DNA of 64,000 bases from an uncultured Roseobacter sp. (lineage in GTDB: Bacteria; Pseudomonadota; Alphaproteobacteria; Rhodobacterales; Rhodobacteraceae): contig NZ_CANLQB010000005.1 of assembly GCF_947493125.1 (NCBI RefSeq), positions 248,001 through 312,000 of the forward strand. Reading direction: 5' to 3'. This document shows, piece by piece, positions 11,978 to 64,000 of the stretch. How positions within the stretch are numbered: position 1 is the stretch's first letter; each line of letters opens with the position of its first letter. The position numbers were made by a program, and so were the translations under genes. The notes below the pieces were generated by a model, which searched no databases, was not told the DNA's origin, and saw nothing but the letters and a program-made list of their open reading frames with translations.

Positions 11978-12072
11978 GACACGACCCCCGGGGCAGACGG
12001 GCACGGCAGGTGCCCAAATTGTCCTGCGTTATAGGCAAGCGCGGACCGGGCGCAAGGGCCGATTGGCGGATT

Positions 12073-12831: not shown

Positions 12832-12910
12832 GACGCAGGAGCTACCGGATTTGACCCGGCCGCGCCAGTGCTATTGCGCTTGGCAGGCGCGCGGGGATAG
12901 GGTCCGGGCG

Positions 12911-13409: not shown

Positions 13410-13506
13410 GAATACCTCTCCTGTCGGTCGCGAACATGTCTTCTACGTGGCAGGAGAACGTTTCCGTCGCGGCTTTATTCCACGGCAGGCGCGCGGCGAC
13501 CGGCAG

Positions 13507-13602
13507 AGGTGGCCTGAAGCCCACCTGACCTGTTAGGACAGATCGGTCGCCCAACAGCCAGACCCTTGGGCAGGCAGGTGGGGTGGGCCTTGGGCCACCC
13601 CT
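13507..13602. repeat. Two copies of the GGTGGG-CCACC intergenic hairpin repeat (family A)
   Basis: A degenerate inverted copy lies at 13507-13532 and a fuller copy at 13573-13602 (GGCAGGTGGGGTGGGC, then CCACCCC). The second ends about 12 nt from the glyA stop codon. Related copies lie at 32153-32181, 42263-42293 and 48933-48962. Each forms a roughly 7-bp GC-rich stem, without a U tract. Confidence 0.65.
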
Positions 13603-13613
13603 CGTTCAAGCCG

Positions 13614-15893: not shown

Positions 15894-17116
15894 TCCTCAG
15901 CCCCGATCTGCGGGCGCCGGCGCCCCGGGGGCTGTGCACGGATTGCGGCGTGTCGCGGATGGAGAATGCCAAGGCCTGCGGGCACGCCTGCCAGTTCATC
16001 GCGCCGGACTATCCCGCGCTGGAGACCCGCGTGCATGGGCGGGCGCGCGGCGACGGGGACGAGCGGTTCTTTGGCCCGTTTCAGGCGATGTATCGCGCCG
16101 AGATGGTGGCGCCTCGGGCGGGCGCGCAATGGACGGGCATCACCACATCGCTGGGCGCGCGGCTTCTGGACCAGGGGGCGGTGCAGGCTGTGCTGACGAT
16201 GATTCCCGACGCCGATGACCGCTGGCGCCCGCAGCCCGCACTGATCACGCAGGCCGAGGAGATGGCGCAGGCACGCGGCATGCGGATGGGCTATGCGCCG
16301 CTTCTGGCCCTGCTGGAGGAGGCGCAGGCGCAGGGGTTCACCCGGCTTGCGGTGATCGGCATTCCCTGCCAGATCTACGCGCTGCGCTGTCTTGAGGCGG
16401 AGTTGGGCCTTGAGCGGCTCTATGTGATCGGAACGCCCTGTTCGGACAATACATCGACCGAGAATTTCCATCATTTTCTCAATCTCTTGGATGAAGATCC
16501 TCATGCGATAGATTATCTTGAGTTCCGGGCGGATTATAAGGTGGAGCTGCGCTTTTCCGACGGGCGGCAGCGGCTCATCCCCTTTCTCAGCCTGCCGATT
16601 TCAGACCTGCCGCAGGACTTCTTCCCGCTGACCTGCCGCACCTGCGTGGATTACACCAACGTGCTGGCGGATATCACCGTCGGCTATATGGGGGGTGAAG
16701 GGCAGCAGTGGGTGCTGGTGCGCAATGCCCGGGGGGCGGAGATGCTGGAGGCGCTGGGCGAGGATATCCGCCTGAGCGCGTCGGGCAGCGCGGGCAAACG
16801 GGCGGGGGCTGTGAAGGGCTTTGTCGCCAATACCGAGCGGGCGGCGGGCGGGCTGCCTCTGCGGCGGATGCCGAATTGGCTGCGGCCCATCGTGAGCTGG
16901 ATGCAGCCGCGGTTTGGCCCGCGCGGGTTGGAGTTCGCCCGGGCGCGGGTCGAGATGAAGGCGGCGGAGACGATCCTGCACCTGCGCCGGGCGATGCCCG
17001 CCAAAATGAAGAATATGGTGCCCCGTCACGTCTGGGACATCGCCGCGCCTTATGGGCTGCGCCCGGACGCGGGTGAGACGCCGCCGCCCGGCCCGCGAGA
17101 CGCCGACACCCCCTAG
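15890..17116 (+). CDS. FrhB-like iron-sulfur flavoprotein (coenzyme F420 hydrogenase/dehydrogenase beta-subunit family)
   Basis: The 408-aa protein starts at GTG 15890, overlapping nadK by 4 bp. Its N-terminal ferredoxin-like Cys set is C16, C19, C30 and C34. Further Cys at 160 and 167 ([11 protein letters not shown]), 184 (TPCSDNTS), and 249 and 252 ([11 protein letters not shown]) are characteristic of the FrhB/FdhB C-terminal domain family that includes BciB and 7-hydroxymethyl chlorophyll reductase. These bind FAD and 4Fe-4S clusters and use reduced ferredoxin or F420. No bch genes are nearby and F420 use is unlikely, so the substrate is unknown. Coupling to NAD kinase is notable. Confidence 0.85.
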
Positions 17117-17673
17117 CCGCGGGGCGCCAGATAGCCGCGGACGATGTCGGCGCTGCGCTCGGCATCGAGGATCGGCGGCAGCAGTGTCAGCATGTCCCCC
17201 GCGCCGTCGAGCAGGTGCACGAAGCTGCCGTGGGCGTAGACCCAGCCGTATTCCGGATCCTGGAAGAGCGGCTCCACCTCTATTGCAAATGCGTCGTAAG
17301 CAGTTTGCAAAGTCGCGCGATCACCCGTTAAGCCGATGAAATCCGGATGGATTTCTGCGAGGGGCGCGCCCATGGTCTCGACGGTGTCCTGATCGGGTGC
17401 CACGGTGATCATCACCGGGGTCACCGCGATTCCATCCTCTGCCAAGGCATCCACCACGTCCGCCATCAGGGGCAGGGCGGCGGAGCAGATGTTGAGGCAG
17501 TTGGCATAGCCGAAGAACAGAAGCTGGGCGTGGCCCTCCGGGTCCGCCTCGGTGCGGGTCTCGCCGAATTGGTTGGTCAGCGCATAAGCCCCGCCGAGAT
17601 CGAAGGGCAGAGGCGGCTCCGCCGCCGCGCTGCTTGCCGCCAGAAGCGAGACGGCCAGCGCCCGCCGCAGCAT
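17113..17673 (-). CDS. SCO1/SenC-family copper/thiol-redox protein
   Basis: The 186-aa exported thioredoxin-fold protein has a signal peptide MLRRALAVSLLAASSAAAE. The SCO metal/thiol motif C59-x3-C63 (ANCLNIC) and the conserved His148 (YAHGSFVH) are both present. SCO proteins deliver copper to or reduce the CuA site of cytochrome oxidase. The ATG at 17673 overlaps the TGA of the upstream gene (ATGA). The stop codon overlaps that of the convergent FrhB-like gene in a CTAG. A rare-codon, AT-rich patch lies at 17281-17318 with two TTGCAAA elements. Confidence 0.88.
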   Translation of the reverse strand: MLRRALAVSLLAASSAAAEPPLPFDLGGAYALTNQFGETRTEADPEGHAQLLFFGYANCLNICSAALPLMADVVDALAEDGIAVTPVMITVAPDQDTVETMGAPLAEIHPDFIGLTGDRATLQTAYDAFAIEVEPLFQDPEYGWVYAHGSFVHLLDGAGDMLTLLPPILDAERSADIVRGYLAPRG

Positions 17674-51990: not shown

Positions 51991-53214
51991 ATGAATGTCG
52001 AAAGCCCGATTCTGAAAGCCAAGGACGCGCCCGACCTGGGCGCCTTTGACTGGTCCGATCCCTTCCGTCTCAATGACCAGCTCGCCGAAGACGAGCGCAT
52101 GATCCGTGACAGCGCCAACTCCTATGCGCAGGAAAAGCTACAGCCGCGCATCATCGAGGCCTTTGAGAAGGAAACCACCGAGCCCGAGATTTTCCGCGAG
52201 ATGGGCGAGATGGGCCTGCTTGGCGTGACCTGCCCGGAGGACTACGGCGGGCTGGGAGGCTCCTACGTCTCCTACGGCCTCGTCGCACGCGAAATCGAGC
52301 GGGTCGACAGCGGCTATCGCTCGATGATGTCGGTGCAGTCGAGCCTGGTGATCTACCCGATCTATGCCTATGGCTCAGAGGCGCAGCGGCAGAAATACCT
52401 ACCGAAGCTCTGCGCGGGCGAATGGATCGGCTGTTTCGGCTTGACCGAGCCCGACGCGGGCTCTGACCCTGCGGGCATGAAAACGCGGGCCGAGAAAACG
52501 GCGACCGGCTACAAGCTCACCGGCTCGAAGATGTGGATTTCCAACGCGCCCATCGCCGATGTCTTCGTGGTCTGGGCGAAGTCCGAGGCGCATGACGGCA
52601 AGATCCGTGGGTTTGTCCTCGAGAAAGGCATGCACGGCCTCTCGGCGCCGAAGGTCGGCAATAAGCTGTCCTTGCGCGCGTCGATCACCGGCGAAATTGT
52701 CATGGATGGTGTCGAGGTCGGCGAAGACGCGCTGCTGCCGAATGTGCAGGGGCTCAAGGGCCCCTTCGGCTGTCTGAACCGCGCGCGCTATGGCATCAGC
52801 TGGGGGACAATGGGGGCGGCCGAGTTCTGCTGGCACGCCGCCCGGCAATACGGGCTCGACCGCAAGCAATTCGGCAAGCCCCTGGCCGCGACACAGCTCT
52901 TCCAGAAGAAGCTCGCCGACATGCAGACGGAAATTGCCCTTGGCCTGCAGGCCTCGCTGCAGGTGGGCCGGCTGATGGATGCCGCCGAGGCCGCGCCCGA
53001 GATGATCTCCATCGTTAAGCGCAATAACTGCGGCAAGGCGCTGGAGATCGCCCGCCACGCCCGCGACATGCACGGCGGGAATGGGATTTCCGGCGAATTC
53101 CAGGTGATCCGCCACATGATGAACCTTGAGACGGTGAACACCTATGAGGGGACCCATGATGTGCATGCTTTGATCCTGGGGCGCGCACAGACGGGCCTGC
53201 AGGCGTTTTTCTGA
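51991..53214 (+). CDS. gcdH: Glutaryl-CoA dehydrogenase
   Basis: The 407-aa flavoenzyme oxidatively decarboxylates glutaryl-CoA to crotonyl-CoA in lysine, tryptophan and benzoate breakdown. [13 protein letters not shown]-like FAD segment ([16 protein letters not shown]), [15 protein letters not shown] (with the substrate Arg) and catalytic Glu386 in [17 protein letters not shown] are GCDH-specific. AGGAGG at 51979-51984 precedes ATG 51991. Regulated probably by the divergent LysR protein. Confidence 0.94.
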
Positions 53215-53313: not shown

Positions 53314-55488
53314 ATGGACCGCGTCCAAATCGTGCATGACAATTTCCTGCGGCGACTGGCGACAGGGGATTTTCCACCCGGCAAACCACCGGCGGGGCCG
53401 CTCGAACCCGCCGAGGCGCTCAAGCTCTATCGTGCGCAGGTGACGAGCCGCGCGCTCGATATCCAGAGCCGCGCGATGCAGAAGGCGGGGCAGGGGTTCT
53501 ACACCATCGGCTCCTCGGGGCATGAGGGGATGGCGGCGGTGGCCCATGCGCTGCGGGTGGATGACATCGCCTTCCTGCATTACCGCGATGCCGCCTTCCA
53601 GCTGGCCCGTGCCGATCAGGCGGGCAAGTCCGGCATGATGCGCGACATGCTTCTGAGCTTCGCCTGTTCCTCCGACGACCCGACCAGTGGCGGGCGGCAC
53701 AAGGTGCTGGGCAGCAAGCCGCTGATGATCCCGCCGCAAACCTCGACCATCGCGAGCCATCTGCCGAAAGCGCTGGGGGCGGCCTACAGCCTCGGTCTCG
53801 CCCGCCGCCGTGCGCCGGAGCATCGCGCCTTGCCGGAGGACGGCATCGCGATGGTCAGCTTCGGCGACGCCTCGGTCAATCATTCCACCGCGCAGGGCAC
53901 GATCAACGCCGCCGGTTGGACCTCCGTGCAAGGTGCGCCGCTGCCGCTGCTGATGGTCTGCGAGGACAATGGCATCGGCATTTCGACCAAGACGCCCGAA
54001 GGCTGGATCACCGCGTCGCTGCAGCACCGCCCCGGGCTGCGCTATTTCGCAGCGAACGGGCTCGACCTCTTCGAGAGTTTCGCGGTCGCTTCGGAGGCCG
54101 CCGACTATGTGCGCCGCCAGCGCAAACCCGCGATCCTGCACCTCTCCATGGTCCGTCTCTACGGTCACGCGGGCGCGGATGTTGCCACAAGCTACCTGCC
54201 GCGCGCGCAGGTCGAGGCGGAGGAAGCGAATGACCCGCTGTTGCACGCCGCCCGGCTTCTGGTGGAGGCCGGTGCCGCCAGTGCTGCGGAGTTGGTGCAA
54301 ATCTATGAAGAGACGTTGAAGGAGGTCGCGGAGGAAGCCGCGCGAGTCGCCACGCGCCCACATCTGCAAACCGTGCAAGATGTGATGTCCAGCCTGATCC
54401 CGCCCGTGCGGGATTGCGCCGCCACGAACGGCCCCGACCCGCAGACCCGCGCCGCCACCTTCGGCAGTGACGTGGCCCAGATGGACAGCCCGCAGCCCAT
54501 GTCGCGGATCATCAACTGGGCGCTGCACGACCTCATGCTTACGCATCCCGAGACGCTCATCATGGGCGAGGATGTGGGGCGCAAAGGCGGTGTCTATGGT
54601 GTCACGCAGAAATTGCAGGCGCGCTTTGGGCCCGACCGGGTGATCGACACGCTGCTCGATGAGCAATCCATCCTCGGTCTCGCCATCGGCACGGCGCACA
54701 ACGGCTTTCTCCCGATGCCGGAAATCCAGTTCCTCGCCTATCTGCACAACGCCGAGGACCAGTTGCGCGGCGAGGCGGCAACGCTGCCCTTCTTCAGCCG
54801 CGGTCAGTGGACGAACCCGATGGTCCTGCGCATCGCGGGGCTGGGTTATCAGAAGGGGTTCGGCGGGCATTTTCACAACGACAACTCGCTCGCCGTGCTG
54901 CGTGACATCCCCGGCCTCGTGATCGCCTGCCCCTCGACCGGGGCCGAGGCCGCGTGCATGCTGCGCGAATGCCACCGGCTGGCGCGGGAGGAGCAGCGGG
55001 TTTGTGTCTTTGTCGAACCCATCGCCCTCTACCCCATGCGCGACCTGCACGCGCCCGGCGATGGTGCCTGGATGACGCGCTACCCCGCACCTGACCAGCG
55101 CGCAGCGCTTGGTGAGATCGGGGTCCACGGGGAGGGCACCGATGTGGCCATCGTGACCTATGGCAACGGCCACTACTTCTCGCGTCAGGCGCAGCAGCGT
55201 CTGACGCAGGACGGGATCAAGGCCCGGGTGATCGACCTGCGCTGGCTGGCCCCGCTTCCGGAGGCAGCGCTGCTGGAGGCCATCGCCCCCTGCACCCATG
55301 TGCTCATCGTCGACGAATGCCGCCGCACCGGCGGGCAGGCCGAGGCGCTTATGACCTTGCTGGCCGAAAACGGCCGCAGCGCCACACGCTATACGGCCGA
55401 GGACAGCTTCATCGCCACCGGCCCCGCCTATGCCGCCACGCTGCCCTCACGCGATGGCATCATCGCCGCCGTCAAGGCGCTACTCTAG
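53314..55488 (+). CDS. Branched-chain 2-oxoacid dehydrogenase E1, fused alpha and beta subunits
   Basis: The 724-aa protein fuses the E1 alpha subunit (about 1-345) and the beta subunit (about 385-724). The alpha half carries HRD-like FLHYRDAAFQLAR and the TPP motif GDASVNHSTAQGTINAA. The beta half has EDVGRKGGVYGVT and the GYGSM-like YGNGHYFSRQAQ. It decarboxylates 2-oxo acids from Val/Leu/Ile. E2 and E3 genes are not nearby, so the complex partners lie elsewhere. It starts at ATG 53314 (GAGGCAGG upstream) and its stop overlaps the convergent NTF2 gene by 9 bp. Confidence 0.88.
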   Translation: MDRVQIVHDNFLRRLATGDFPPGKPPAGPLEPAEALKLYRAQVTSRALDIQSRAMQKAGQGFYTIGSSGHEGMAAVAHALRVDDIAFLHYRDAAFQLARADQAGKSGMMRDMLLSFACSSDDPTSGGRHKVLGSKPLMIPPQTSTIASHLPKALGAAYSLGLARRRAPEHRALPEDGIAMVSFGDASVNHSTAQGTINAAGWTSVQGAPLPLLMVCEDNGIGISTKTPEGWITASLQHRPGLRYFAANGLDLFESFAVASEAADYVRRQRKPAILHLSMVRLYGHAGADVATSYLPRAQVEAEEANDPLLHAARLLVEAGAASAAELVQIYEETLKEVAEEAARVATRPHLQTVQDVMSSLIPPVRDCAATNGPDPQTRAATFGSDVAQMDSPQPMSRIINWALHDLMLTHPETLIMGEDVGRKGGVYGVTQKLQARFGPDRVIDTLLDEQSILGLAIGTAHNGFLPMPEIQFLAYLHNAEDQLRGEAATLPFFSRGQWTNPMVLRIAGLGYQKGFGGHFHNDNSLAVLRDIPGLVIACPSTGAEAACMLRECHRLAREEQRVCVFVEPIALYPMRDLHAPGDGAWMTRYPAPDQRAALGEIGVHGEGTDVAIVTYGNGHYFSRQAQQRLTQDGIKARVIDLRWLAPLPEAALLEAIAPCTHVLIVDECRRTGGQAEALMTLLAENGRSATRYTAEDSFIATGPAYAATLPSRDGIIAAVKALL

Positions 55489-56466
55489 CGCATTCGACCG
55501 CGCGGTCAGATCCACGCCCATCTGCCTCATCAGATCCATATAGTCGAGCAACACCCAGTTCTCGGCGATCTTGCCGCCCGCACAGCGGTAGAAATCCATC
55601 ACCCGCAGCGTCAGGTCGCGCCCCGTCGGCGCCACGCCCAGATAGGGCCCCCGATGCGTCATCGTCATCGACGGCCAGCCCGAGACCGCCGCAAAATTCC
55701 CATCTCCGATCCGGCAATAGTGATTGCCCCCCTTGCGGTCCGGGAAGGCGGCCAGAAACGGCGCGCGGTGGTCCTTCACGAACCCTTCCCAGCGGTAATT
55801 CGACCCGATCCCGCAGGGCCCGTACCACATCATGTCCTCGGCCCAATAGCCGTCCGCACCGGTCTGCCCTTTCGACCCACCCGTCGCCGGGTCATAGACA
55901 TGCAGATCGCCCAGCATCGCCTCCACCAGATCCAGGCTCGCGCCACCATCACCCGTCTGTGGCAGCACCCCGTCATGGGTTGCCGGTCCGGGAAACAGCC
56001 CCTCCAGCCCCAGCTGCCCACCAAACGGGTCACGCCCCGCCTGGCGCATCAGATCCGGAAGATCGAGGATGATTCGCGCCTGGGTTATGCGCCGATCCTC
56101 GACCCGGTAGAACTCTCCGGCGCGCAAAAACGCCAGCCGACCCGAGGGCTTTATGCCGAAAAACGCGGCATCGAAGGTGCCAACATAATGCGTCACCGCT
56201 GCAATCCACTGACCGCCCTCGGCTCGCCGGTTCATCCCGGTGATGAATATTTCGTCTCGCCGATAGACATGCCGCAGTGCTGCGCGCAACGGCGCATAGA
56301 ACCCCTCTGCAATCGCGTCGATTCCGTCCAGACGGCCCAAAGGATGTGACATTTCAAAGGCACAGTCCGGGTGCAGAACCTGCGCGCAACGCCGCCGCAT
56401 CGTGGCGTCATCGCCCCTCAAGAGCGTGTTTAACAAATCGTGAATTTTTTGCTGAAGATCGGGCAT
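55480..56466 (-). CDS. Two-domain NTF2/SnoaL-like protein (transport locus, copy 1)
   Basis: The 328-aa protein has two NTF2-like cone folds. Domain 1 spans about 1-150 (DLQQKIHDLLNTLLRGDD, MSHPLGRLDGIDAIAEGFYAPL, LAFLRAGEFYRVEDRRITQARIILDLPDLMRQAG). Domain 2 spans about 190-325 (WYGPCGIGSNYRWEGFVKDHRAPFL, VMDFYRCAGGKIAENWVLLDYMDLMRQMG). Both end in the same helix DLMRQ-G, showing an internal duplication. SnoaL-like enzymes are often isomerases or cyclases, but no catalytic Asp/His pair can be fixed. It is divergent from the ABC ATPase and shares the 126-bp control region. Confidence 0.8.
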   Translation of the reverse strand: MPDLQQKIHDLLNTLLRGDDATMRRRCAQVLHPDCAFEMSHPLGRLDGIDAIAEGFYAPLRAALRHVYRRDEIFITGMNRRAEGGQWIAAVTHYVGTFDAAFFGIKPSGRLAFLRAGEFYRVEDRRITQARIILDLPDLMRQAGRDPFGGQLGLEGLFPGPATHDGVLPQTGDGGASLDLVEAMLGDLHVYDPATGGSKGQTGADGYWAEDMMWYGPCGIGSNYRWEGFVKDHRAPFLAAFPDRKGGNHYCRIGDGNFAAVSGWPSMTMTHRGPYLGVAPTGRDLTLRVMDFYRCAGGKIAENWVLLDYMDLMRQMGVDLTARSNALE

Positions 56467-56496
56467 GGGCTGGCATCCTGAGAGCGCAATTTCGGG

Positions 56497-56514
56497 TTTG
56501 CACACGTGTGCAAA
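56497..56514. promoter_or_regulatory. 18-bp perfect palindrome, probable operator of the transport locus
   Basis: TTTGCACACGTGTGCAAA is perfectly symmetric with a central CpG. It lies between the start codon of the NTF2-like gene (56466) and the ABC ATPase (56593), an ideal position to control both. Central CG and TTTGCA arms are typical of LacI-type operators. No regulator gene for it is in the window. Confidence 0.65.
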
Positions 56515-56552
56515 AAATCCTTGCCAAGCGCCGCGTGTAATGTCTAGCGTGA

Positions 56553-56573
56553 ATGCAACCTGCAAAATGCAGG
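56553..56573 (+). promoter_or_regulatory. Leader repeat of TGCAAMM units before the ABC ATPase gene
   Basis: Three TGCA elements at exact 7-nt spacing (ATGCAACC-TGCAAAA-TGCAGGG) lie 20-40 nt upstream of the ATPase ATG. The arrangement recurs in the leader of the binding-protein gene (57722-57744). Confidence 0.5.
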
Positions 56574-56592
56574 GCGCGACAGCGGGGGACAT

Positions 56593-57672
56593 ATGGCCGA
56601 GATTCAACTTCGGAACGTCAACAAGCGGTGGGGCAGCTTTGTCGGTGTCGATAATTTCGACCTCACCATTGCCGATCAGGAATTCCTCGTGCTGCTAGGC
56701 CCCTCGGGCTGCGGCAAGACCACGACCATGCGCATGATCGCGGGGCTGGAAGACGCTACCGATGGCGAGATTGTCATTGACGGGCGCGTGGTCAACGACC
56801 TCGACCCGAAAGACCGCGACGTGGCCATGGTGTTCCAGTCCTACGGGCTCTACCCGAACATGAACGTCTATGAGAACATCCGCTTTCCGCTGAAAGTGCG
56901 TAAAGTGCCTGATGCCGAACATGACGAGCGGGTGCGCCGCGCCTCCGCCATGGTCGAGCTTGACGACTTCCTGCACCGCAAACCCGCCGAGCTCTCCGGC
57001 GGCCAGCGCCAACGGGTGGCGCTCGCCCGCGCGATTGTGCGCGAACCCAACGTCTTCCTGATGGACGAACCGCTCTCGAACCTCGATGCCAAGCTGCGGG
57101 TCTCGACCCGTGCGCAGATCAAGAACCTCAGCCACGAGCTGAAAGTGACCACCGTCTATGTGACCCACGACCAGATCGAAGCGATGACCCTGGCAGATCG
57201 CGTGGTCGTCATGAAGCAGGGCAAGGTCCAGCAGGTGGGCACGCCCACCGACATCTACGACCACCCCGCCAATACCTTCGTGGCGAGCTTCATCGGCAGC
57301 CCGGCCATGAACCTGATGGATGGCACGCTGCAGGGTGGCACCTTCACCGGCGACAATGTCTCAATCTCCGGCCTGACCGGCCCGGATGGTCCGGTCACGC
57401 TCGGGTTCCGCGCCGAGGATGCGACGCTCGCCGAAGGTGCCAGCGGCCAGATAACGGCGCCGATCTATACGATCGAGCTCCTGGGCGATGCCACCATGCT
57501 GACGGTTCGGGCGGGAGGGCAGCTGGTCTCCGTCAAGGCGCACAAGGAGTACCGCGCCGAGATCGGCGACACCGTGTCCTTCGCCGTGCCTGTCGGCATT
57601 TGCCATCTTTTCAACACGGACACCGGCATGCGGCTTGATATCGGATCGCAACAGCACGCCGAGAGCGCCTGA
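56593..57672 (+). CDS. Carbohydrate ABC transporter ATP-binding protein (UgpC/MalK type)
   Basis: The 359-aa ATPase of the CUT1 family has Walker A GPSGCGKTTTM near residue 37, signature LSGGQRQRVALARA, Walker B VFLMDEPLSNLDA, the H-loop VTHDQIEAM and a C-terminal regulatory TOBE-like domain (GFRAEDATLAEG). It powers the importer built from the downstream permeases. GGGGGA lies before the ATG. Operon with the binding protein, permeases, an NTF2-like protein and a HisD-like enzyme. Confidence 0.94.
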   Translation: MAEIQLRNVNKRWGSFVGVDNFDLTIADQEFLVLLGPSGCGKTTTMRMIAGLEDATDGEIVIDGRVVNDLDPKDRDVAMVFQSYGLYPNMNVYENIRFPLKVRKVPDAEHDERVRRASAMVELDDFLHRKPAELSGGQRQRVALARAIVREPNVFLMDEPLSNLDAKLRVSTRAQIKNLSHELKVTTVYVTHDQIEAMTLADRVVVMKQGKVQQVGTPTDIYDHPANTFVASFIGSPAMNLMDGTLQGGTFTGDNVSISGLTGPDGPVTLGFRAEDATLAEGASGQITAPIYTIELLGDATMLTVRAGGQLVSVKAHKEYRAEIGDTVSFAVPVGICHLFNTDTGMRLDIGSQQHAESA

Positions 57673-57680
57673 GCCTACAC

Positions 57681-57696
57681 GCCCCGGATCCGGGGC
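57681..57696 (+). other. Intercistronic palindrome between ATPase and binding-protein genes
   Basis: GCCCCGGATCCGGGGC is a perfect 16-bp palindrome 9 bp after the ATPase stop. It can form a 6-bp stem with a GATC loop; no T run follows. It may separate the expression of the ATPase from the binding protein. Confidence 0.6.
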
Positions 57697-57721
57697 CAAC
57701 CGACGGGTGCAGCCTTGCAAG

Positions 57722-57757
57722 ATGCACCCTGCAAAACTGCAAAAGGGAGTTTGCAAA
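57722..57757 (+). promoter_or_regulatory. TGCAAAA leader repeats over the binding-protein ribosome-binding site
   Basis: ATGCACCC-TGCAAAAC-TGCAAAA, AAAGGGAG and TTTGCAAATG lie in a row, the last overlapping the start codon at 57757. TGCA cores at 57723, 57730, 57738 and 57752 are spaced about 7, 8 and 14 nt. It is strikingly similar to 56553-56573. A protein or small RNA that binds repeated TGCAAA could control translation. Confidence 0.5.
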
Positions 57758-58974
57758 TGTTTCTGAGAAAAATCGCACTGGCGGGCGTCGTCTCGCTCAT
57801 GGGGAGCGCGGCACTGGCCTGTTCCTATGAGAACGAGGTGCCGATCAAATCGCTGAGCGCTGGTTTTGAAGCCTGGAAGGCCGTGACCGATGCCATGGCC
57901 GAATGCGGCAATTTCCAGGCCGAGCTGGACCAGGAGTTCCGCACCAAGCAGCCCGCGGCCTTCGAGGCCAACCCGTCGCTCTATCAGATCGGTGGCGTGT
58001 CGAACGGCACCATCACGCCGTTGCTCAACGCGGGCACGATCCGTCCGTTGGATGATCTGGTCGAGAAATACGGCCAGAACCTCAAGCCCAACCAGCTGAT
58101 CCGGATCAACGGCCAGATCATGGCCGTGGCGATGATGGTGAACACCCAGCACCTGATGTACCGCTCCGACGTGCTGGCGGATCTGGGCATCGAAACGCCG
58201 ACCACCTGGGATGAGGTCTATGCGGCCGCCGCGCAGATCAAGGAGGCCGGGGTGATGGATTACCCGCTTGGGGCCACCATGAAGTCCGGTTGGAACCTCG
58301 CGCAGGAATTCGTGAATATGTATCCCGCGCACGGCGGTAAATTCTTCAATGATGACAATACCGCAGCGATCAATTCTGAGGCGGGTCTGGCCGCATTGGA
58401 AACGATGAAGGCGGCCCTGGACTTCACCGACCCGGAAGTTCTGGTGAGCGATTCAACCTACGTGCAGCAGCAGTTCCAGCAGGGCAAGATCGCCATGGCC
58501 AACCTCTGGGCCAGCCGGGCAGGCGCCATGAATGATCCCGCCGAAAGCGAGGTGGTCGGCAAGGTGGCGATGGCCGCAGCACCCAAGGCGACAGCCGATG
58601 GTGCGCCCGCCACAACGCTCTGGTGGGACGGTATCGTCATCGCTCAGAACATCTCCGACGAGGAGGCCGATGCGGCCTTCCGTCTGGCCATGGAAGGTCT
58701 GGACGCCGAGACCGTGCAGGGCGCCAACGATGCGGCGATCTGGCTGGTCGACGGCTATGAGCCGACCGAGATCGCCGCAGGGGCCATCGCCACGGCGACC
58801 GCCAATCCGGCGCCGCCAGCCTATCCGTCGACGACCCAGATGGGTTTGCTACACACCGCGTTGGGCAATGAGCTGCCCGCGTTCCTGACCGGTGAGCGCG
58901 ATGCGGCGGCAACCTTGGTCGCAATCGAGGAGGCTTATACGACCTCCGCCAAGGAAGCAGGCGTCCTCAAGTAA
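57757..58974 (+). CDS. Extracellular substrate-binding protein of the carbohydrate ABC transporter
   Basis: The 405-aa periplasmic protein (COG1653-like) has a signal peptide MFLRKIALAGVVSLMGSAALAC. The mature protein has the two-lobe fold: QIGGVSNGTITPLLNAGTI, LMYRSDVLADLGIETPTTWDEVY, QGKIAMANLWASR and LWWDGIVIAQN. Trp-rich pocket positions are visible (WNLAQEF, WWDG, WLVDGY). Ligand not identified. ATG 57757 has AAAGGGAG upstream. A strong stabilising hairpin follows the gene. Confidence 0.93.
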   Translation: MFLRKIALAGVVSLMGSAALACSYENEVPIKSLSAGFEAWKAVTDAMAECGNFQAELDQEFRTKQPAAFEANPSLYQIGGVSNGTITPLLNAGTIRPLDDLVEKYGQNLKPNQLIRINGQIMAVAMMVNTQHLMYRSDVLADLGIETPTTWDEVYAAAAQIKEAGVMDYPLGATMKSGWNLAQEFVNMYPAHGGKFFNDDNTAAINSEAGLAALETMKAALDFTDPEVLVSDSTYVQQQFQQGKIAMANLWASRAGAMNDPAESEVVGKVAMAAAPKATADGAPATTLWWDGIVIAQNISDEEADAAFRLAMEGLDAETVQGANDAAIWLVDGYEPTEIAAGAIATATANPAPPAYPSTTQMGLLHTALGNELPAFLTGERDAAATLVAIEEAYTTSAKEAGVLK

Positions 58975-58979
58975 CGTCG

Positions 58980-59007
58980 GGGCTGGCCGGAACCGCCCGG
59001 CCAGCCC
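58980..59007 (+). other. Intercistronic hairpin after the binding-protein gene
   Basis: GGGCTGGCCGG (58980-58990) and CCGGCCAGCCC (58997-59007) form a perfect 11-bp stem with a 6-nt loop, 6 bp after the stop. No U tract. Such structures at the 3' end of binding-protein genes usually stabilise that message relative to the permease part. Confidence 0.75.
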
Positions 59008-59045
59008 TCCGCGCCTGGGGCTGTGTCAAACGCATGACGCTGCGT

Positions 59046-59075
59046 TTTGCAAAGTCCCGGCGATGAATTTGCAAA
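59046..59075 (+). promoter_or_regulatory. Paired TTTGCAAA octamers in the permease leader
   Basis: TTTGCAAA at 59046-59053 and again at 59068-59075, 22 bp centre to centre (14 nt between), 25-55 nt upstream of the permease ATG. The same spacing occurs in prpE (21093/21115) and sco (17282/17304). Confidence 0.45.
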
Positions 59076-59099
59076 CAGCCCTGCCGCAAGGAGAGCCCC

Positions 59100-60125
59100 A
59101 TGAAATTCAAGACATTTGCCGCCTTCGTCGGGCCGTCCGTCTTTATGATGCTCCTCTTCATCGCGGCCCCACTGGTCAGCGTCTTCATCCAGAGTTTTCA
59201 GGTCACCCAGCCGATCCTCGAACAGGTCGAGGTCGAGACCTGCACACCCGGGTTCCTGACCCAGACCTGCACCACCGAAATCAAGACCGTCCCGGTGCTG
59301 GACGACAATGGCAAGACGCTCACCGAAACCCGCTGGGTGGGCCTGCAAAGCTATCAGAATGTCCTGCAGATGGACAAGTTCTGGGAGGCGGTCGGCAACG
59401 GCAGCTGGAACCAGATCATGCAGATCGACTTCTGGAAGGCCCTGCGCTTCACGCTCTCCTTCACGCTGCTGACCTTGCCGCTGGTGATCGGCGTCGGCCT
59501 CGCCATCGCGCTTGCGGTCAACAACGCCACGCGCTCCATCCGTGGCCCCATCATCTTCATCTCGCTCCTGCCGTTCATCATCACACCCGTGATCGGCTCG
59601 CTCTCGATCTACTGGCTCTTCGTGGGCGACGGTATCCTGACCGCGATGCTCGAACGCTGGACGGGCACCAACATTTCCATGTTCGCGCAGGCCTGGACCA
59701 TCGAGCTGCTGATGTATTTCTACCGCGTCTGGCACGTGGCGCCCTTCGCCTTCGTGATCTTCTACGCCGGCCTGCAGACCGTGAACATGGACACGCTGGA
59801 ATCGGCCGTGATCGACGGCGCCAGCCGCTGGGAGCGCCTGCGCCACGTGATCATCCCGCACCTGATGCCGCTCATCATCTTCATCGCGCTCATCCACCTG
59901 ATGGATTGCTACCGCGTCTTCGAAGAGATCGTTGGTTTCCGCAGCCAGGCGCATGTGATCTCGCTGCAGTGGCTCACCTATGATTTCATGACCCCGGATG
60001 ATGCGGGCAACCGTGCGATCTCCCGCGCCTCGGCCTCGGCCATGCTGACCATGATCGGGATCGTGTTCCTGCTGATCCTGCCGCTGCGCCGCACCTGGCG
60101 CGACCACAAAGGGAGCGCGCACTGA
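59100..60125 (+). CDS. Carbohydrate ABC transporter permease 1 (MalF/UgpA type)
   Basis: The 341-aa inner-membrane subunit has six or seven transmembrane helices. The EAA loop is in TLESAVIDGASRWERLRHVIIPHLMP, broken here as ESAVIDGASRWERL. A periplasmic loop between the first two helices contains two Cys (VETCTPGFLTQTC). AAGGAGAG lies before the ATG. Its TGA overlaps the start of permease 2 by one base. Confidence 0.93.
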   Translation: MKFKTFAAFVGPSVFMMLLFIAAPLVSVFIQSFQVTQPILEQVEVETCTPGFLTQTCTTEIKTVPVLDDNGKTLTETRWVGLQSYQNVLQMDKFWEAVGNGSWNQIMQIDFWKALRFTLSFTLLTLPLVIGVGLAIALAVNNATRSIRGPIIFISLLPFIITPVIGSLSIYWLFVGDGILTAMLERWTGTNISMFAQAWTIELLMYFYRVWHVAPFAFVIFYAGLQTVNMDTLESAVIDGASRWERLRHVIIPHLMPLIIFIALIHLMDCYRVFEEIVGFRSQAHVISLQWLTYDFMTPDDAGNRAISRASASAMLTMIGIVFLLILPLRRTWRDHKGSAH

Positions 60126-61282
60126 TGTCTACCTCCAAGGCCATGCAGCAGTCCTTTGCGCTGCGCTTCTCCTCCGGCGCCTTCCTCGCCTTCTGGTGCC
60201 TGCTCGCCGCCTTCCCGATCTTCTGGATAGCGGTGATGAGCTTCAAATCGCCCGTCGACGCCTTCGCCGACAGCCCCTGGGACGTGATCTTCGGCCCGGC
60301 GACCCGCGCGAACGGAGACGGACTCTCTGTCATCGACATCGTCGTCGGCCTCATCGTGCTCTTCTTCGCGATCCGCTGGGCCTTCACCAAACTGCCCGAT
60401 CTGGTGCGCCAATACTGCCCGCCCGGGCTGATCGTGCTGGGCTGGATCGTGGGGGCCTTGGTCTATGCGATCGTCTTCGTGCTGATCTTCTTCGGTCTCT
60501 TGCCCCTGATCCTTGGGGCGCTCAACGGCCTCTTTGGCCCGCTGGGCGCGCCGGTTCTGGGCCTGACGACCGAGCACTACGTTGCGGTCTGGGCCGAGAA
60601 CGAATTCTACCGCAACTTCCTCAACTCCATGCTGGTCACCGCAGGTGTGGTGACGGTCTCGCTGACGGTGGGCACCCTGGCGGGCTACGGGCTCGCCCGC
60701 TCCGGCTCAGATCTGGCGTTCTGGCTGCTGATCCTGGCGCTGGTCTTCCGCGCCTTGCCGCACTCCGTGCTGGTCGCGGGCTACCTGCCGGTCTTCATCA
60801 ACTCCTCCGAAATCCTGCGCCCCATCCTCGGCGAGGGCGCGCCCACACTCTACGGCCAGCCCTGGGCGGTGATCGCGGTGCTCGTCGCGATCAACCAGCC
60901 CTTCACCATCTGGATGCTGCGCAGCTTCTTCCAGAACATCCCGGCCGAGCTCGACGAGGCCGCCCGGGTTGATGGCTGCAGCCACTTCCAGGCCTTCCGC
61001 CGCGTGATCATGCCGGTGATGTGGCCGGGTGTGATCACCACGGGGCTCTTCAGTTTCCTCTTGGGCTACAACGACTTCCTCGTAACGTCGCTGCTGCTCG
61101 ACGCGCAGAACCAGACGATGGTCCCGGCCATCGCGGGCTACTTCAACCGCGAAACCACCACCACCGATCAGGTCGAAGCCGTCGCCGCTGCCGTCTCCAT
61201 CACGGCCCCGCTCTTCCTGCTGGTCATGGTTTTCCAGCGCCAGATCGTCTCGGGCTTGACCGCGGGGGCCGTGAAGGGCTGA
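60125..61282 (+). CDS. Carbohydrate ABC transporter permease 2 (MalG/UgpE type)
   Basis: The 385-aa inner-membrane permease has an EAA loop in ELDEAARVDGCSHFQAFRRVIMP and TM segments flanking it. It is longer than typical MalG because of an N-terminal insert (about residues 70-150) containing two extra hydrophobic segments (VIDIVVGLIVLFFAIRWAF, LIVLGWIVGALVYAIVFV). ATG 60125 shares one base with the permease 1 stop (TGATG). Confidence 0.92.
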   Translation: MSTSKAMQQSFALRFSSGAFLAFWCLLAAFPIFWIAVMSFKSPVDAFADSPWDVIFGPATRANGDGLSVIDIVVGLIVLFFAIRWAFTKLPDLVRQYCPPGLIVLGWIVGALVYAIVFVLIFFGLLPLILGALNGLFGPLGAPVLGLTTEHYVAVWAENEFYRNFLNSMLVTAGVVTVSLTVGTLAGYGLARSGSDLAFWLLILALVFRALPHSVLVAGYLPVFINSSEILRPILGEGAPTLYGQPWAVIAVLVAINQPFTIWMLRSFFQNIPAELDEAARVDGCSHFQAFRRVIMPVMWPGVITTGLFSFLLGYNDFLVTSLLLDAQNQTMVPAIAGYFNRETTTTDQVEAVAAAVSITAPLFLLVMVFQRQIVSGLTAGAVKG

Positions 61283-61407
61283 TGAGCAAGCGGTCGAGAT
61301 CAGGGTTGGTGCAACGTCATCCGGCGCTCAACCGGCTGCCACGGGATTTCATCAGCGGAGGCGCTTCCTGAGCATACGCTTTTCCACCTTGATGACAGGA
61401 GCACCCT

Positions 61408-61938
61408 ATGAAGGGATCCAGACCAGAGCAGGCCGTGCTGAGCAGAGACACGGATATGAGCAAGACAGACCAAACCCGCGCGGTGATCGAAGGCATGGTC
61501 GATGGGCTGAACGACCACCGCATCGACGATATCGGGGCGTTCTTCGCGGAAAACTTCCGCTGGATGGGCAACCAGGGCTGCGGCACCAAGACCGGCCTGA
61601 AAGAATTTCAGGACAACTGGCAGCGCCCGTTTCAGGCGTCGTTTTCCGACAAGATCTGCGTCGACAAGGCGCGGCTTTACATGGGCGAATGGGCCGCGGC
61701 ATTCGGGCGGCAGGAGGCCACGCATTCCGGGACCTTCATGGGTGTGGAACCGACCGGCAAGCGCGTGAACATCCGGTATATGGATTTCTGGAAAGTGGAG
61801 GACGGCAGGATCACCGGCAATTGGGTGATGGTCGATTTTCCGCATGTATTGGCGCAGCTGGGCGTGGATGTGTTCGGGGGCGAGGGCTGGGAGGCCTTTG
61901 ACCGGGGAGCGAAGACCCCGCCGCGCCCGGATCAGTGA
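61408..61938 (+). CDS. NTF2/SnoaL-like protein (transport locus, copy 2)
   Basis: The 176-aa single-domain NTF2-like protein has AVIEGMVDGLNDHRIDDIGAFFAENFRWMGNQG, then MGVEPTGKRVNIRYMDFWKVEDGRITGNWVMVDFPHVLAQLGVD. The C-terminal module resembles domain 2 of the 55480 protein (YRCAGGKIAENWVLLDYMDLMRQ). AGGAGC 5-6 nt before ATG 61408 supports that start rather than ATG 61456. It is 125 bp after permease 2 and 12 bp before the HisD-like gene. Confidence 0.85.
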   Translation: MKGSRPEQAVLSRDTDMSKTDQTRAVIEGMVDGLNDHRIDDIGAFFAENFRWMGNQGCGTKTGLKEFQDNWQRPFQASFSDKICVDKARLYMGEWAAAFGRQEATHSGTFMGVEPTGKRVNIRYMDFWKVEDGRITGNWVMVDFPHVLAQLGVDVFGGEGWEAFDRGAKTPPRPDQ

Positions 61939-61950
61939 GGAGAGAGTGAG

Positions 61951-63279
61951 ATGGCAATCGACTATCTGAAACGCGGCAAATCCGACGCGGAGCGCGCGGA
62001 GGATGATGCCAAGACGCGGGCCGCGGTTGAGGCGACGCTCGCCGACATCGAGGCGCGTGGCGATGCGGCCGTGCGGGAGCTCAGCGAAAAGTTCGACAAC
62101 TACTCACCGGCCTCCTTCCGGCTCAGCGAGGAGGAGATCGACGACCTCATCGCCCAGCTTTCTCCGCGCGAACTCGAAGATATCAAATTCGCGCAGGAGC
62201 AGGTGCAGAACTTCGCGCAGGCGCAACGGGATTCGATGCTGGATATCGAGGTGGAGACGATGCCCGGCGTGATCCTTGGGCACAAGAACATTCCCGTCCA
62301 GTCCGTTGGGTGCTACGTGCCCGGCGGTAAGTTCCCCATGGTGGCCTCGGCGCATATGTCCGTGGCCACGGCGAGCGTCGCAAAGGTGCCGCGCATCATC
62401 GCCTGCACCCCGCCGTTTCAGGGCAAGCCGAATGCCGGCGTGATCGCCGCGATGCACTTGGGCGGCGCGCATGAGATCTATGTGATGGGTGGTATTCAGG
62501 CCGTGGGTGCGATGGCACTGGGGACGGAGACCATTGATCCGGTGCATATGATCGTGGGTCCGGGCAATGCCTTTGTGGCGGAGGCCAAACGGCAGCTTTT
62601 CGGGCGCGTGGGGATTGATCTTTTCGCCGGTCCCACCGAGACGATGGTGATCGCCGACGAGACGGTCGATGCGGAAATGTGCGCGACGGACCTTCTGGGC
62701 CAGGCCGAGCACGGGTACAACTCGCCCGCAGTACTGTTGACGAACTCGCGCAAGCTCGCGGAGGAAACGGTCTCCGAGATCGACCGCATCCTGCAAATCC
62801 TGCCGACGGCAGAGACCGCGCGCGTGAGTTGGGAGGAGTATGGCGAGGTCATTCTCTGCGACAGCTACGACGAGATGCTGCAGGTCGCCGATGATGTAGC
62901 CAGCGAGCATGTGCAGGTGATGACCGACCGCGACGACTGGTTCCTCGAGCATATGACCTGCTACGGCGCGCTGTTCCTTGGGCCCCGCACGAACGTGGCG
63001 AATGGCGACAAGGTGATCGGCACCAACCATACGCTGCCGACGAAGAAGGCGGGGCGCTATACGGGCGGGCTCTGGGTCGGCAAGTTCCTGAAAACCCACA
63101 GCTATCAGAAGGTGACCACGGATGCGGCGGCGGCGGAAATCGGCGCCTACGGCTCGCGTCTCTGCATGTTGGAGGGATTCGTGGGCCACGCCGAGCAATG
63201 CAACCTGCGGGTCCGTCGCTACGGTGGCATCAACGTGCCTTACGGTGAAGGCGCGCCGGCAACAGAGGCTGCGGAATGA
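61951..63279 (+). CDS. Histidinol-dehydrogenase-like NAD-dependent oxidoreductase (HpsN-type homolog)
   Basis: The 442-aa protein is of the HisD fold but is not with other his genes. Residues matching the zinc ligands of HisD are present: Q251 and H254 ([10 protein letters not shown]), D353 ([10 protein letters not shown]), H413 (GFVGHAEQ); the catalytic pair E319-H320 is in SEHVQV. Homologs outside histidine synthesis include the sulfopropanediol dehydrogenase HpsN; overall similarity is comparable but not specific. A polyol or sulfonate oxidation role is inferred from the adjacent importer. GGAGAGAG precedes ATG 61951. Confidence 0.88.
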
Positions 63280-63286
63280 GCGGAGA

Positions 63287-63334
63287 GGCGGGGGCGCCGG
63301 GCGGGGCGCAAGCGCCCCGCCCGGCGCCCCCGCC
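63287..63334 (+). other. 23-bp all-G/C hairpin between the HisD-like and NTF2-like genes
   Basis: Positions 63287-63309 are the exact reverse complement of 63312-63334, separated by AA, and every base in the 23-bp stem is G or C. It starts 7 bp after the HisD-like stop and ends about 30 bp before the next ATG. No T run. It must strongly affect message processing or read-through. Confidence 0.9.
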
Positions 63335-63366
63335 GCCAGCCCTACACGGTTCAACCAGAAGACGCC

Positions 63367-64000
63367 ATGGATTTACACTCTGAACACAAAGACCTCATCG
63401 CCCCGCTGCGCGCGGCGATGTATGATCTTGATATCGCACGGGTTCGCGCGGTCTTGCACGACATCTGTACGCCGGATGTCACCTTTCGCCTCGCCTTTCC
63501 CTTCGAGACCACCACCGGCGTCGATGCTTATCTAGATGCGGCTTACGTACCGCTTGTCCAGGCTATCCCCGATCTGGAGCGCCGCGATCATATCGTGATG
63601 GCGGGGCCCACGCCGGATGGCGCAGATTGGGTCGGTTGCGGCGGTTTCTACACCGGAACCTTCCGCGCCCCCTGGCTCGACATCCCGCCGACCGGGCATC
63701 TGCTTCATATGCGGTTTCACGAGTTCTACCGCGTCGAGAACGGCAAGATCGTCGAGATGCAGGCGCTCTGGGACCTGCCGGAGGTCATGATGCAGTCAGG
63801 CGCCTGGCCGATGACCCCATCCCTGGGGCGGGAGTGGCACATTCCGGGCCCTGCCACCTGCGACGGTCTTGTGCCGGGCCCTCATGACGCTGCGCAGGGT
63901 GCGGCCACCTGCCAGCATATCATCGACATGCTGGCGCATCTCAAGCGCCACCCGGCGCAGGGCGGCCCCGAGGTCATGGAGATGCCCAGGTTCTGGCATC
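63367..64000 (+). CDS. Two-domain NTF2/SnoaL-like protein (transport locus, copy 3; 3' end outside window)
   Basis: The open frame from ATG 63367 (MDLHSEHKDLIAPLRAAMYDL) runs to the window end (211 codons, no stop). Domain 1 has LHDICTPDVTFRLAFPFETTTGVDAYLDAA, then MRFHEFYRVENGKIVEMQALWDLPEVMMQ. A second domain begins with TCQHIIDMLAHLKRH, PEVMEMPRFWH, similar to the start of domain 2 in the 55480 protein. So it is another two-domain member. It lacks a strong ribosome-binding site and follows a 23-bp hairpin. Confidence 0.85.
   Translation, partial: MDLHSEHKDLIAPLRAAMYDLDIARVRAVLHDICTPDVTFRLAFPFETTTGVDAYLDAAYVPLVQAIPDLERRDHIVMAGPTPDGADWVGCGGFYTGTFRAPWLDIPPTGHLLHMRFHEFYRVENGKIVEMQALWDLPEVMMQSGAWPMTPSLGREWHIPGPATCDGLVPGPHDAAQGAATCQHIIDMLAHLKRHPAQGGPEVMEMPRFWH

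What the first reader, a model, noticed from the sequence alone, without database searches (positions are those of the whole stretch)
55480..64000. Uncharacterised uptake-and-oxidation locus: CUT1 ABC importer with three NTF2/SnoaL-like proteins and a HisD-like dehydrogenase
Sequence shows a complete sugar-type importer (ATPase, binding protein, two permeases) followed by a single-domain NTF2-like protein, a HisD-fold enzyme with all expected metal and catalytic residues, and a two-domain NTF2-like protein, with another two-domain NTF2-like gene divergent from the ATPase. HisD-fold enzymes outside histidine synthesis are known to oxidise small polyols such as dihydroxypropanesulfonate (HpsN). 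I infer import of a polyol, sugar acid or sulfonated compound, oxidation by the HisD-like enzyme, and handling of the product by NTF2-like proteins.
Basis: partly seen in the sequence, partly recalled or inferred. Interest (0 to 1): 0.75.

Follow-up and report, generated by a model that had tools for sequence, protein, structure and literature searches.

The report
Widespread uncharacterised marine nutrient-degradation operon
This is a genuine set of genes, shared by many marine and some soil bacteria, that appears to take up and break down some still unknown small organic compound; its key enzyme resembles one that degrades an algal sulfur compound but lacks the part that recognises the sulfur group.

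Summary
In detail: a complete CUT1-type ABC importer, one single-domain and two double-domain SnoaL/NTF2 proteins and a HisD-fold dehydrogenase lie where stated. The gene array continues past the window with SDR, LacI, another double SnoaL, cupin, MetE-like and RraA-like genes. The set is co-conserved: of 394 family genomes, 127 have the single-domain SnoaL gene and 123 of these also carry this HisD type. A LacI-type inverted repeat precedes the importer in 61 of 65 loci. Much of the set recurs, rearranged, in a distant 1.4-Mb alphaproteobacterium.

The HisD-like enzyme belongs to its own clade beside HpsN (DHPS-3-dehydrogenase). It keeps the catalytic residues and sulfonate-contacting lysine but lacks the diagnostic sulfonate histidine: 115 of 115 unique close members read GKFPM where HpsN reads GRY[A/S]H. 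The genome has a separate hps-like locus. So dihydroxypropanesulfonate is unlikely.

Most likely: a LacI-controlled catabolic operon in which HisD-like enzyme and SDR oxidise a vicinal diol, probably carboxylated or carbonyl-bearing; SnoaL, methyltransferase and aldolase steps follow. The substrate is unknown and no activity was shown. Boldest reading not excluded: mycosporine/gadusol-type algal sunscreens.

The parts
55480..56607 (-). double-domain SnoaL/NTF2 protein (SnoaL2_A), divergent; probable true start near 56466 (inferred)
   Evidence: a homolog in 46 of 62 full-length loci
56497..56514 (.). perfect 18-bp palindrome TTTGCACACGTGTGCAAA, probable LacI-family operator between the divergent genes
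   Evidence: core GCAnnCGnnTGC within 300 bp upstream of the ABC ATPase in 61 of 65 loci (61 of 66, one of which was cut at the locus end); 0.029 per 300 bp over all loci; one of two exact matches in the genome to TTTGCANNCGNNTGCAAA, the other with a different core on contig C3
56593..57672 (+). ABC importer ATPase, MalK/UgpC type
57715..58974 (+). periplasmic binding protein, SBP_bac_1 (probable start 57757, signal peptide; inferred)
   Evidence: best solved match 5iai, E 4.6e-15
59100..60125 (+). ABC permease A
60125..61282 (+). ABC permease B, 385 aa
61408..61938 (+). single-domain SnoaL/NTF2 protein (SnoaL1)
   Evidence: in 127 of 394 family genomes at E 1e-30 or better
61951..63279 (+). 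HisD-like dehydrogenase of the GKFPM clade
63367..64000 (+). double-domain SnoaL/NTF2 protein (SnoaL2_B), cut by the window end; complete in L004:9367-10413 (348 aa)

Best explanation
A LacI-controlled catabolic operon: 14 co-directional genes from the ATPase to an RraA-like gene beyond the window, plus a divergent SnoaL gene. The CUT1 ABC importer brings in a small hydroxylated compound (inferred). The HisD-like enzyme oxidises a terminal CH2OH beside a hydroxyl to a carboxylate in a four-electron, Zn- and NAD-dependent reaction, as HisD and HpsN do (inferred from conserved residues). Its substrate should carry a carboxylate or carbonyl rather than a sulfonate near Lys354 (inferred: in HpsN the sulfonate meets Zn, Lys353 and His126; here His126 is Met and the lysine is kept). 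The SDR, a distant relative of HpsO, oxidises the neighbouring secondary alcohol (inferred). SnoaL enzymes isomerise, dehydrate or hydrolyse the keto intermediates; the MetE-like enzyme moves a methyl group to a thiol; the cupin protein, an alpha/beta hydrolase (not seen in this genome's copy) and the RraA-type aldolase finish to central metabolites (all inferred). Shown: gene content, co-conservation, the inverted repeat, clade and motif. Not shown: any activity, ligand, transcript or substrate.
For: Genes overlapping or closely spaced on one strand. Homologs within the stretch in the 62 loci longer than 21 kb, of 80 fetched: LacI 61, SnoaL2_C 61, SnoaL2_B 59, ATPase 57, cupin 57, SDR 56, permeases 54 each, SnoaL1 52, MetE-like 51, RraA 50. 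123 of 127 SnoaL1 genomes have this HisD type, against 69 of 267 without SnoaL1; odds ratio 88, Fisher p 7e-46. Inverted repeat before the importer in 61 of 65 loci, and 0 before SBP (of 29), permease A (29), permease B (29), SnoaL1 (65), SnoaL2_B (71), LacI (73), SnoaL2_C (72), cupin (65), MetE-like (58) and RraA (55). Much of the set, rearranged, in a 1.4-Mb genome. The HisD-SDR pair also stands with TRAP, TAXI-TRAP or other neighbours. Catalytic and metal residues kept.
Against: No biochemical or growth data exist here. The 80 loci were the nearest by HisD identity, so describes near kin; its counts are tblastn homologs (E 1e-10, 40% of the query or more) and include a few low-identity paralogues (ATPase and LacI above all). 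Fisher's test ignores phylogeny, though the 394 genomes stand for 393 genera. 69 of 192 genomes with this HisD lack SnoaL1, and 4 of 127 with SnoaL1 lack this HisD. 15 of the 94 SnoaL1 places compared were not within 5 kb of an entered HisD place. In the 1.4-Mb genome SDR, cupin and SnoaL1 match at only 32-36% and no LacI was found. Four of 20 distant loci show no SDR hit. Vibrio pelagius and Halobellus clusters carry SnoaL sets without an annotated HisD in the stretches read.
Confidence: 0.62

Rival explanations
1. The HisD-like enzyme is a diverged DHPS (or other sulfonate) dehydrogenase and the operon a second sulfonate route.
For: Closest solved structures are DHPS dehydrogenases (8v35 381.5 bits; 8wwe 368.4), about 124 bits or more ahead of the best HisD (244.5); the lysine that contacts sulfonate is kept; the SDR is related to HpsO (35%); LacI + TRAP + HisD + SDR loci mirror hpsRKLMNO.
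Against: The His126 equivalent is Met, Leu or Ile in every clade member examined (115 of 115; 25 of 25 further rows); the genome already has a hps-like locus with GRYSH; no gene named as a sulfolyase in the annotated neighbourhoods read, which were not searched by profile; one TauD/TfdA-family gene stands at the edge of L125.
Confidence: 0.1
2. Sugar-acid or polyol route: the HisD-like enzyme oxidises the terminal CH2OH of an aldonate-like acid, the SDR the next hydroxyl, and an RraA/HpcH-type aldolase cleaves the keto acid; SnoaL genes are accessories for some substrates.
For: HisD-SDR with TAXI-TRAP + RraA + aldolase/citrate-lyase-family gene in Antarctobacter; aldolase hits near the pair in L159, L161, L162 and L164; the SDR's nearest models are KduD and gluconate 5-dehydrogenase, though below their cut-offs; OtnK and an aldolase in an Ensifer cluster with a 62% SnoaL2_C.
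Against: Does not by itself explain four SnoaL proteins, the cupin protein and the MetE-like enzyme of the full cluster.
Confidence: 0.28
3. Histidinol salvage: a true histidinol dehydrogenase fed by an importer.
For: TIGR00069 above its cut-off (431.4 against 243.8 bits).
Against: Another HisD at 37% identity exists in the genome; the HisD motif GSAPL is absent; the Lys354 position is Tyr in that other HisD; I recognise no histidine-synthesis gene in the gene list of L004.
Confidence: 0.03

Closest known systems
HpsN, DHPS-3-dehydrogenase (8v35 C. pinatubonensis; R. pomeroyi HpsN)
   Same: fold, Zn and catalytic residues (E, H, D, K), partner SDR and LacI
   Different: 45% identity to the same genome's HpsN; motif G-[KR]-[FY]-P-[MLI] instead of G-R-Y-A/S-H, so no sulfonate histidine
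hps locus of Ruegeria pomeroyi (SPO0590-0598; PMC4334477, passages seen)
   Same: LacI + transporter + HisD-like + SDR logic, closest in the TRAP versions
   Different: CUT1 ABC instead of TRAP in the window; no UspA or sulfolactate genes recognised; an alcohol dehydrogenase about 7.5 kb downstream of the HisD-SDR pair is only weakly like the genome's HpsP-like protein (32% over 196 residues); SnoaL, cupin, MetE-like and RraA genes added
Biosynthetic HisD
   Same: fold; four-electron alcohol oxidation (inferred for the window enzyme)
   Different: 37% identity; motif and lysine position differ; separate gene present
SnoaL/IdmH/AclR and double-domain Lsd19, MonBI/II (NTF2-fold enzymes)
   Same: NTF2 fold; two fused domains as in Lsd19
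   Different: whole-chain TM-score only about 0.3 to the double-domain enzymes (domain arrangement differs or is mispredicted); no polyketide synthase named in the regions read
3-O-methylgallate route of Pseudomonas sp. NGC7 (MgaC hydrolase, MgaD SnoaL-like, GalC aldolase; PMC12314914, passages seen)
   Same: combination of alpha/beta hydrolase, SnoaL-like isomerase (predicted there) and an aldolase in degradation of a methoxylated ring; that GalC is of the RraA type is recalled
   Different: no LigAB-type ring dioxygenase named in the cluster; direct homology of the proteins not tested

Membership tests
HpsN (DHPS-3-dehydrogenase) | G-R-Y-A/S-H motif with sulfonate-binding His126 | tested here: not met
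   GKFPM in 115 of 115 unique close clade rows; G[KR][FY]P[MLI] in 25 of 25 further clade rows
HpsN (DHPS-3-dehydrogenase) | Glu318, His319, Asp352, Lys353 equivalents | tested here: met
   E319, H320, D353, K354
HpsN (DHPS-3-dehydrogenase) | R-DHPS oxidation to sulfolactate | not testable with these tools
   needs an enzyme assay
HpsN (DHPS-3-dehydrogenase) | hpsP or sulfolyase genes in the neighbourhood | tested here: inconclusive
   none so named in the annotated regions, but not sought by profile; the window's downstream alcohol dehydrogenase is only 32% over 196 residues to the genome's HpsP-like protein
Histidinol dehydrogenase HisD | TIGR00069 score above cut-off | tested here: met
   431.4 against 243.8; the name does not separate HisD from this clade
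Histidinol dehydrogenase HisD | G-S-A-P-L motif | tested here: not met
   GKFPM; note that the genome's other HisD reads GLASY, so the motif is not universal
CUT1 ABC importer | one UgpC/MalK ATPase, SBP_bac_1, two BPD_transp_1 permeases | tested here: met
SnoaL/NTF2 fold | Pfam SnoaL above gathering score; NTF2 fold | tested here: met
   SnoaL2_B model pLDDT 89.4 and Foldseek matches; the other three were not modelled
Mycosporine/gadusol catabolism | growth on or conversion of mycosporine-like amino acids | not testable with these tools
   no reference genes known to me

The most novel reading that the evidence does not exclude
The full SnoaL cluster degrades methoxylated cyclohexenone sunscreens of algae (mycosporine-like amino acids and gadusols). 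SnoaL enzymes hydrolyse the amino-acid arms and later dehydrate the ring, the HisD-like enzyme oxidises the C5 CH2OH beside the tertiary hydroxyl to give a methylgallate-like acid, the MetE-like enzyme takes the methyl group to homocysteine, and cupin, hydrolase and RraA aldolase open and cleave the ring.
Probability: 0.08. Interest if true: 0.88.

Novelty: new variant of a known kind. Interest (0 to 1): 0.58.

Why it matters
A catabolic gene set whose SnoaL1 marker is in 127 of 394 genomes of the window's family, and much of which recurs in a distant 1.4-Mb alphaproteobacterium, points to a common compound whose degradation route is unassigned. It also shows that proteins named histidinol dehydrogenase, or close enough to be taken for HpsN, include a large third group that should not be counted as DHPS degraders in ocean surveys.

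Tried and rejected
DHPS as substrate: judged unlikely on the motif and the second, hps-like locus. Histidine metabolism: judged unlikely. Rfam scan of 55000-64000: nothing at gathering score. Cupin structure: model poor (mean pLDDT 55.6), not used; its profile's only solved match is acireductone dioxygenase at E 0.0039 over 43 positions, treated as weak. Pfam finds one cupin stretch in that protein; a second cupin half is my reading of the sequence. Reading the HisD family from the NCBIfam name alone: rejected.

Literature: none of the titles and abstract starts listed by searches (14 of 14 listed; none found; 15 of 39 listed; 7 of 7; 1 of 1) describes this cluster, nor do those of searches (15 of 217; 9 of 9; 10 of 124) show bacterial mycosporine catabolic genes. 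Only open PMC papers are held, and papers beyond the listings were not seen. Passages were read in PMC11382572, PMC11131964, PMC12314914, PMC3621897, PMC4103551, PMC4334477 and PMC3083659; no paper was read whole.

Partial inputs. For adjacency I entered by hand 102 HisD places from the truncated listing (count) and SnoaL1 places, of which 94 (of 131 matches tallied there) lay in a genome with an entered HisD place. The 1e-150 cut for 'this HisD type' was my choice, in the gap between 4.3e-123 and 2.1e-174's best E-values. One search counted genes cut at the locus end; one search repeats it without them. The context labels rest on hits within 2.6 kb, and loci L001-L003 and L007-L035 hold only about 1.5 kb on each side. 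Structure job A7 used 21 rows, including SnoaL2_C and SnoaL2_A paralogues. Searches (Ensifer E-60; Paracoccus) returned records without annotation in the stretch.

Full report
Setting. The window is G000:C5:248001-312000 of a 4.83-Mb genome. The closest named locus is Roseobacter sp. MH60115 (HisD-like 96%), so the genome is a roseobacter (inference).

The observation. The genome shows what lies beyond position 64000 (L004 = C5:302001-322000): the second double SnoaL protein is 348 aa (L004 9367-10413), then an SDR (10410-11171, overlapping both neighbours), a LacI regulator (11171-12187), a further double SnoaL protein (12184-13158), a cupin-domain protein (13297-14262), a hypothetical gene, a MetE-II-like gene (15380-16507) and an RraA-like gene (16504-17199). 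A gene that I read as enolase-superfamily and an alcohol dehydrogenase follow on the other strand; homologs of these two stand in only 2 of 62 loci each.

Co-conservation. Of the 62 loci longer than 21 kb, homologs within the stretch (tblastn, E 1e-10, 40% of the query or more) were: LacI 61, SnoaL2_C 61, SnoaL2_B 59, ATPase 57, cupin 57, SDR 56, permeases 54 each, SnoaL1 52, MetE-II 51, RraA 50, SnoaL2_A 46, alpha/beta hydrolase 39, SAM methyltransferase 17. These loci are the nearest by HisD identity, and a few hits are low-identity paralogues, so the figures describe near kin. A broader test is the family search: of 394 genomes, 192 have a HisD of this type (best E below 1e-150; no best E lies between 4.3e-123 and 2.1e-174), 127 have SnoaL1 (E at most 1e-30), 123 have both, 4 have SnoaL1 only, 69 this HisD only and 198 neither (odds ratio 88, Fisher p 7e-46, phylogeny not modelled but 393 genera). 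Of 94 SnoaL1 places compared with the HisD places I entered, 79 lie within 5 kb and 15 do not. In the class search 56 of 385 genomes carry a HisD at E 1e-150 or better, 62-100% identical. Twenty of these places were fetched. In L169, from a genome of 1.4 Mb with 32% GC in this stretch, permease A, binding protein, SnoaL1, double SnoaL proteins, MetE-II, RraA, cupin, HisD (74%) and SDR stand together in a different order; SDR, cupin and SnoaL1 match at only 32-36%, and LacI was not found. Of the 20 loci, 16 have an SDR hit and 4 (L153, L165, L167, L168) do not; some add amidase, aldolase, LacI, cupin, MetE-II, SnoaL or TRAP genes.

One control point. An inverted repeat GCAnnCGnnTGC occurs within 300 bp upstream of the ATPase in 61 of 65 loci, against 0.029 per 300 bp over all 1.53 Mb of the 80 loci, the sites themselves included. 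It is absent before SBP (0 of 29), permease A (29), permease B (29), SnoaL1 (65), SnoaL2_B (71), LacI (73), SnoaL2_C (72), cupin (65), MetE-II (58) and RraA (55), and rare before HisD (5 of 82) and SDR (1 of 68). In the window it is the perfect 18-mer TTTGCACACGTGTGCAAA at 56497-56514. In the genome one other exact match to TTTGCANNCGNNTGCAAA exists, with a different core, on contig C3, and 13 places match with up to two mismatches against 3 for the control pattern. The form fits a LacI-family operator (recalled).

The HisD-like enzyme. The nearest solved proteins are DHPS dehydrogenases (8v35, 381.5 bits; 8wwe, 368.4), then histidinol dehydrogenases (244.5 bits and less). PMC11382572 (abstract and passages seen) reports that His126 in the motif G-R-Y-A/S-H separates HpsN from HisD (G-S-A-P-L), that His126 and Lys353 contact the sulfonate, and that Glu318, His319 and Asp352 are important for activity. 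The window enzyme has G-K-F-P-M, with E319, H320, D353, K354 and the metal residues kept. The 115 unique close members all have GKFPM and the same nine key residues; 25 of 25 further clade rows down to 63% identity read G-[KR]-[FY]-P-[MLI]. The genome's other HisD reads GLASY, so the published HisD motif is not universal. On a tree of 122 rows the 115 GKFPM rows form one group with SH-aLRT 99, apart from the genome's own HpsN, its other HisD and further HisD-like proteins; it is a quick tree with several very long branches, so the deeper order is unsure. The label of genomic setting (SnoaL, TRAP or other) needs 16 changes on that tree, fewer than for shuffled labels (mean 21.1); starred branches force at least 6 for SnoaL. 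So the same enzyme seems to be plugged into different uptake systems, though some settings are cut short by locus ends.

The hps-like locus. At C11 (L005) lie LacI, an HpsN with GRYSH (45% to the window enzyme), an SDR (35% to the window SDR), a zinc alcohol dehydrogenase, a UspA protein, a sulfopyruvate-decarboxylase-like pair and an FMN dehydrogenase (names mine, not searched by profile). PMC4334477 (passages seen) lists for R. pomeroyi SPO0590-0598: hpsR, hpsKLM, hpsN, hpsO, hpsP, hpsQ (UspA), slcD. With DHPS served there and the sulfonate histidine missing here, the window operon most likely serves another compound. A carboxylate would need one contact fewer than a sulfonate, which fits loss of His126 with Lys354 kept (inference). 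The alcohol dehydrogenase downstream of the window operon is only weakly like the HpsP-like protein (32% over 196 residues).

The SnoaL proteins. Profiles hit SnoaL-type cyclases and hydroxylases. The predicted SnoaL2_B structure is good (mean pLDDT 89.4, pTM 0.89). Foldseek ranks the double-domain epoxide hydrolases MonBI/MonBII and Lsd19 first by E-value but with whole-chain TM-scores near 0.3, and single SnoaL-like domains (IdmH, AclR, SnoaL2, ChaU) with TM about 0.7-0.85 by target length. An aspartate near each domain's end is invariant (D143 in 15 rows; D136 and D314 in 19 rows); that it is the catalytic base of SnoaL is recalled, not tested.

Relatives in other phyla. Deinococcus sp. QL22 (two hisD, four SnoaL, CUT1 genes, LacI, cupin, hydrolase, aldolase), Priestia filamentosa (LacI, SDR, cupin, hydrolase, aldolase, SnoaL, hisD, amidase, MFS), the archaeon Halobellus limi (five SnoaL, MetE-II, an aminomethyltransferase-family protein, ABC importer) and Vibrio pelagius (importer and four SnoaL/NTF2) carry recognisably similar sets. 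MetE-II relatives in Novosphingobium US6-1 and Sphingobium RAC03 sit beside an NTF2 protein, with an aminomethyltransferase or glycine-cleavage-T-like protein, metF and purU a few kilobases on, and ligAB in US6-1; this looks like a methoxy-aromatic demethylation setting (inference). Other MetE-II relatives, in Rhodococcus and two haloarchaea, have no such neighbours named. The Zn ligands and homocysteine-side motifs of MetE appear conserved in alignment A6 (motifs recalled).

The bold reading. Mycosporine-like amino acids have a methoxy-enone ring with a CH2OH next to a tertiary hydroxyl (structure recalled). PMC12314914 (passages) describes a route for 3-O-methylgallate with an alpha/beta hydrolase, a predicted SnoaL-like tautomerase and an aldolase. 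PMC3083659 (passages) says that Vibrio harveyi was suggested to hydrolyse shinorine and porphyra-334, giving mycosporine-glycine and 4-deoxygadusol. These fit the gene content, but nothing here tests it. Against it: four rhizobial plasmids carry the HisD without a named SnoaL gene in the stretches read, so HisD's substrate is unlikely to be exclusive to algae; and soil isolates carry the SnoaL set too (Ensifer adhaerens E-60 has HisD, SnoaL1 and SnoaL2_C within 4 kb; Paracoccus alcaliphilus). Hence probability 0.08.

Verdict. A real, widely conserved gene set that looks like an uncharacterised catabolic operon. Importer, SnoaL, SDR and LacI are known kinds; the HisD-like clade is a distinct, unassigned branch beside HpsN. 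Interest 0.58.

Noticed in passing
window 53314-55488 and about 52000-53214: A fused alpha/beta 2-oxo-acid dehydrogenase E1-like gene and an acyl-CoA dehydrogenase (my reading) stand directly upstream; genes so annotated stand upstream of the operon in Ruegeria sp. THAF33 too. Possibly a separate 2-oxoadipate/glutaryl-CoA route; the E1 is within the stretch in only 5 of 80 loci, partly because the stretch ends there.
   Followed up: partly
L005 (G000:C11:112001-127985): A DHPS-degradation-like locus (hpsN, O, P, Q order) in the same genome.
   Followed up: yes
L041, L107, L164 and L140: A further HisD-like subfamily (motif GRYPL or GRFPL, 39-47% to the window enzyme), in some loci in a cluster with amidase, double SnoaL and CUT1 genes; also uncharacterised.
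   Followed up: partly
L073 and L083 (JAHVJD010000006.1): A contig labelled Nocardioides marinus carries roseobacter-like operons (HisD 90% identical); probably mislabelled or contaminated.
   Followed up: no
L129/L135 Halobellus limi NZ_CP031313.1: Five SnoaL genes in tandem with a MetE-II gene on a haloarchaeal plasmid beside an ABC importer, no HisD annotated in the 27.5-kb stretch.
   Followed up: partly
window 60125-61282: Permease B is 385 aa, about 90 residues longer than the corresponding permease gene of Labrenzia (879 bp), with extra N-terminal segments.
   Followed up: no
G000:C3:378459 and C3:383863: A second LacI-type palindrome (TTTGCAACCGGTTGCAAA and a one-mismatch copy) about 5 kb apart, possibly another sugar regulon.
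   Followed up: no
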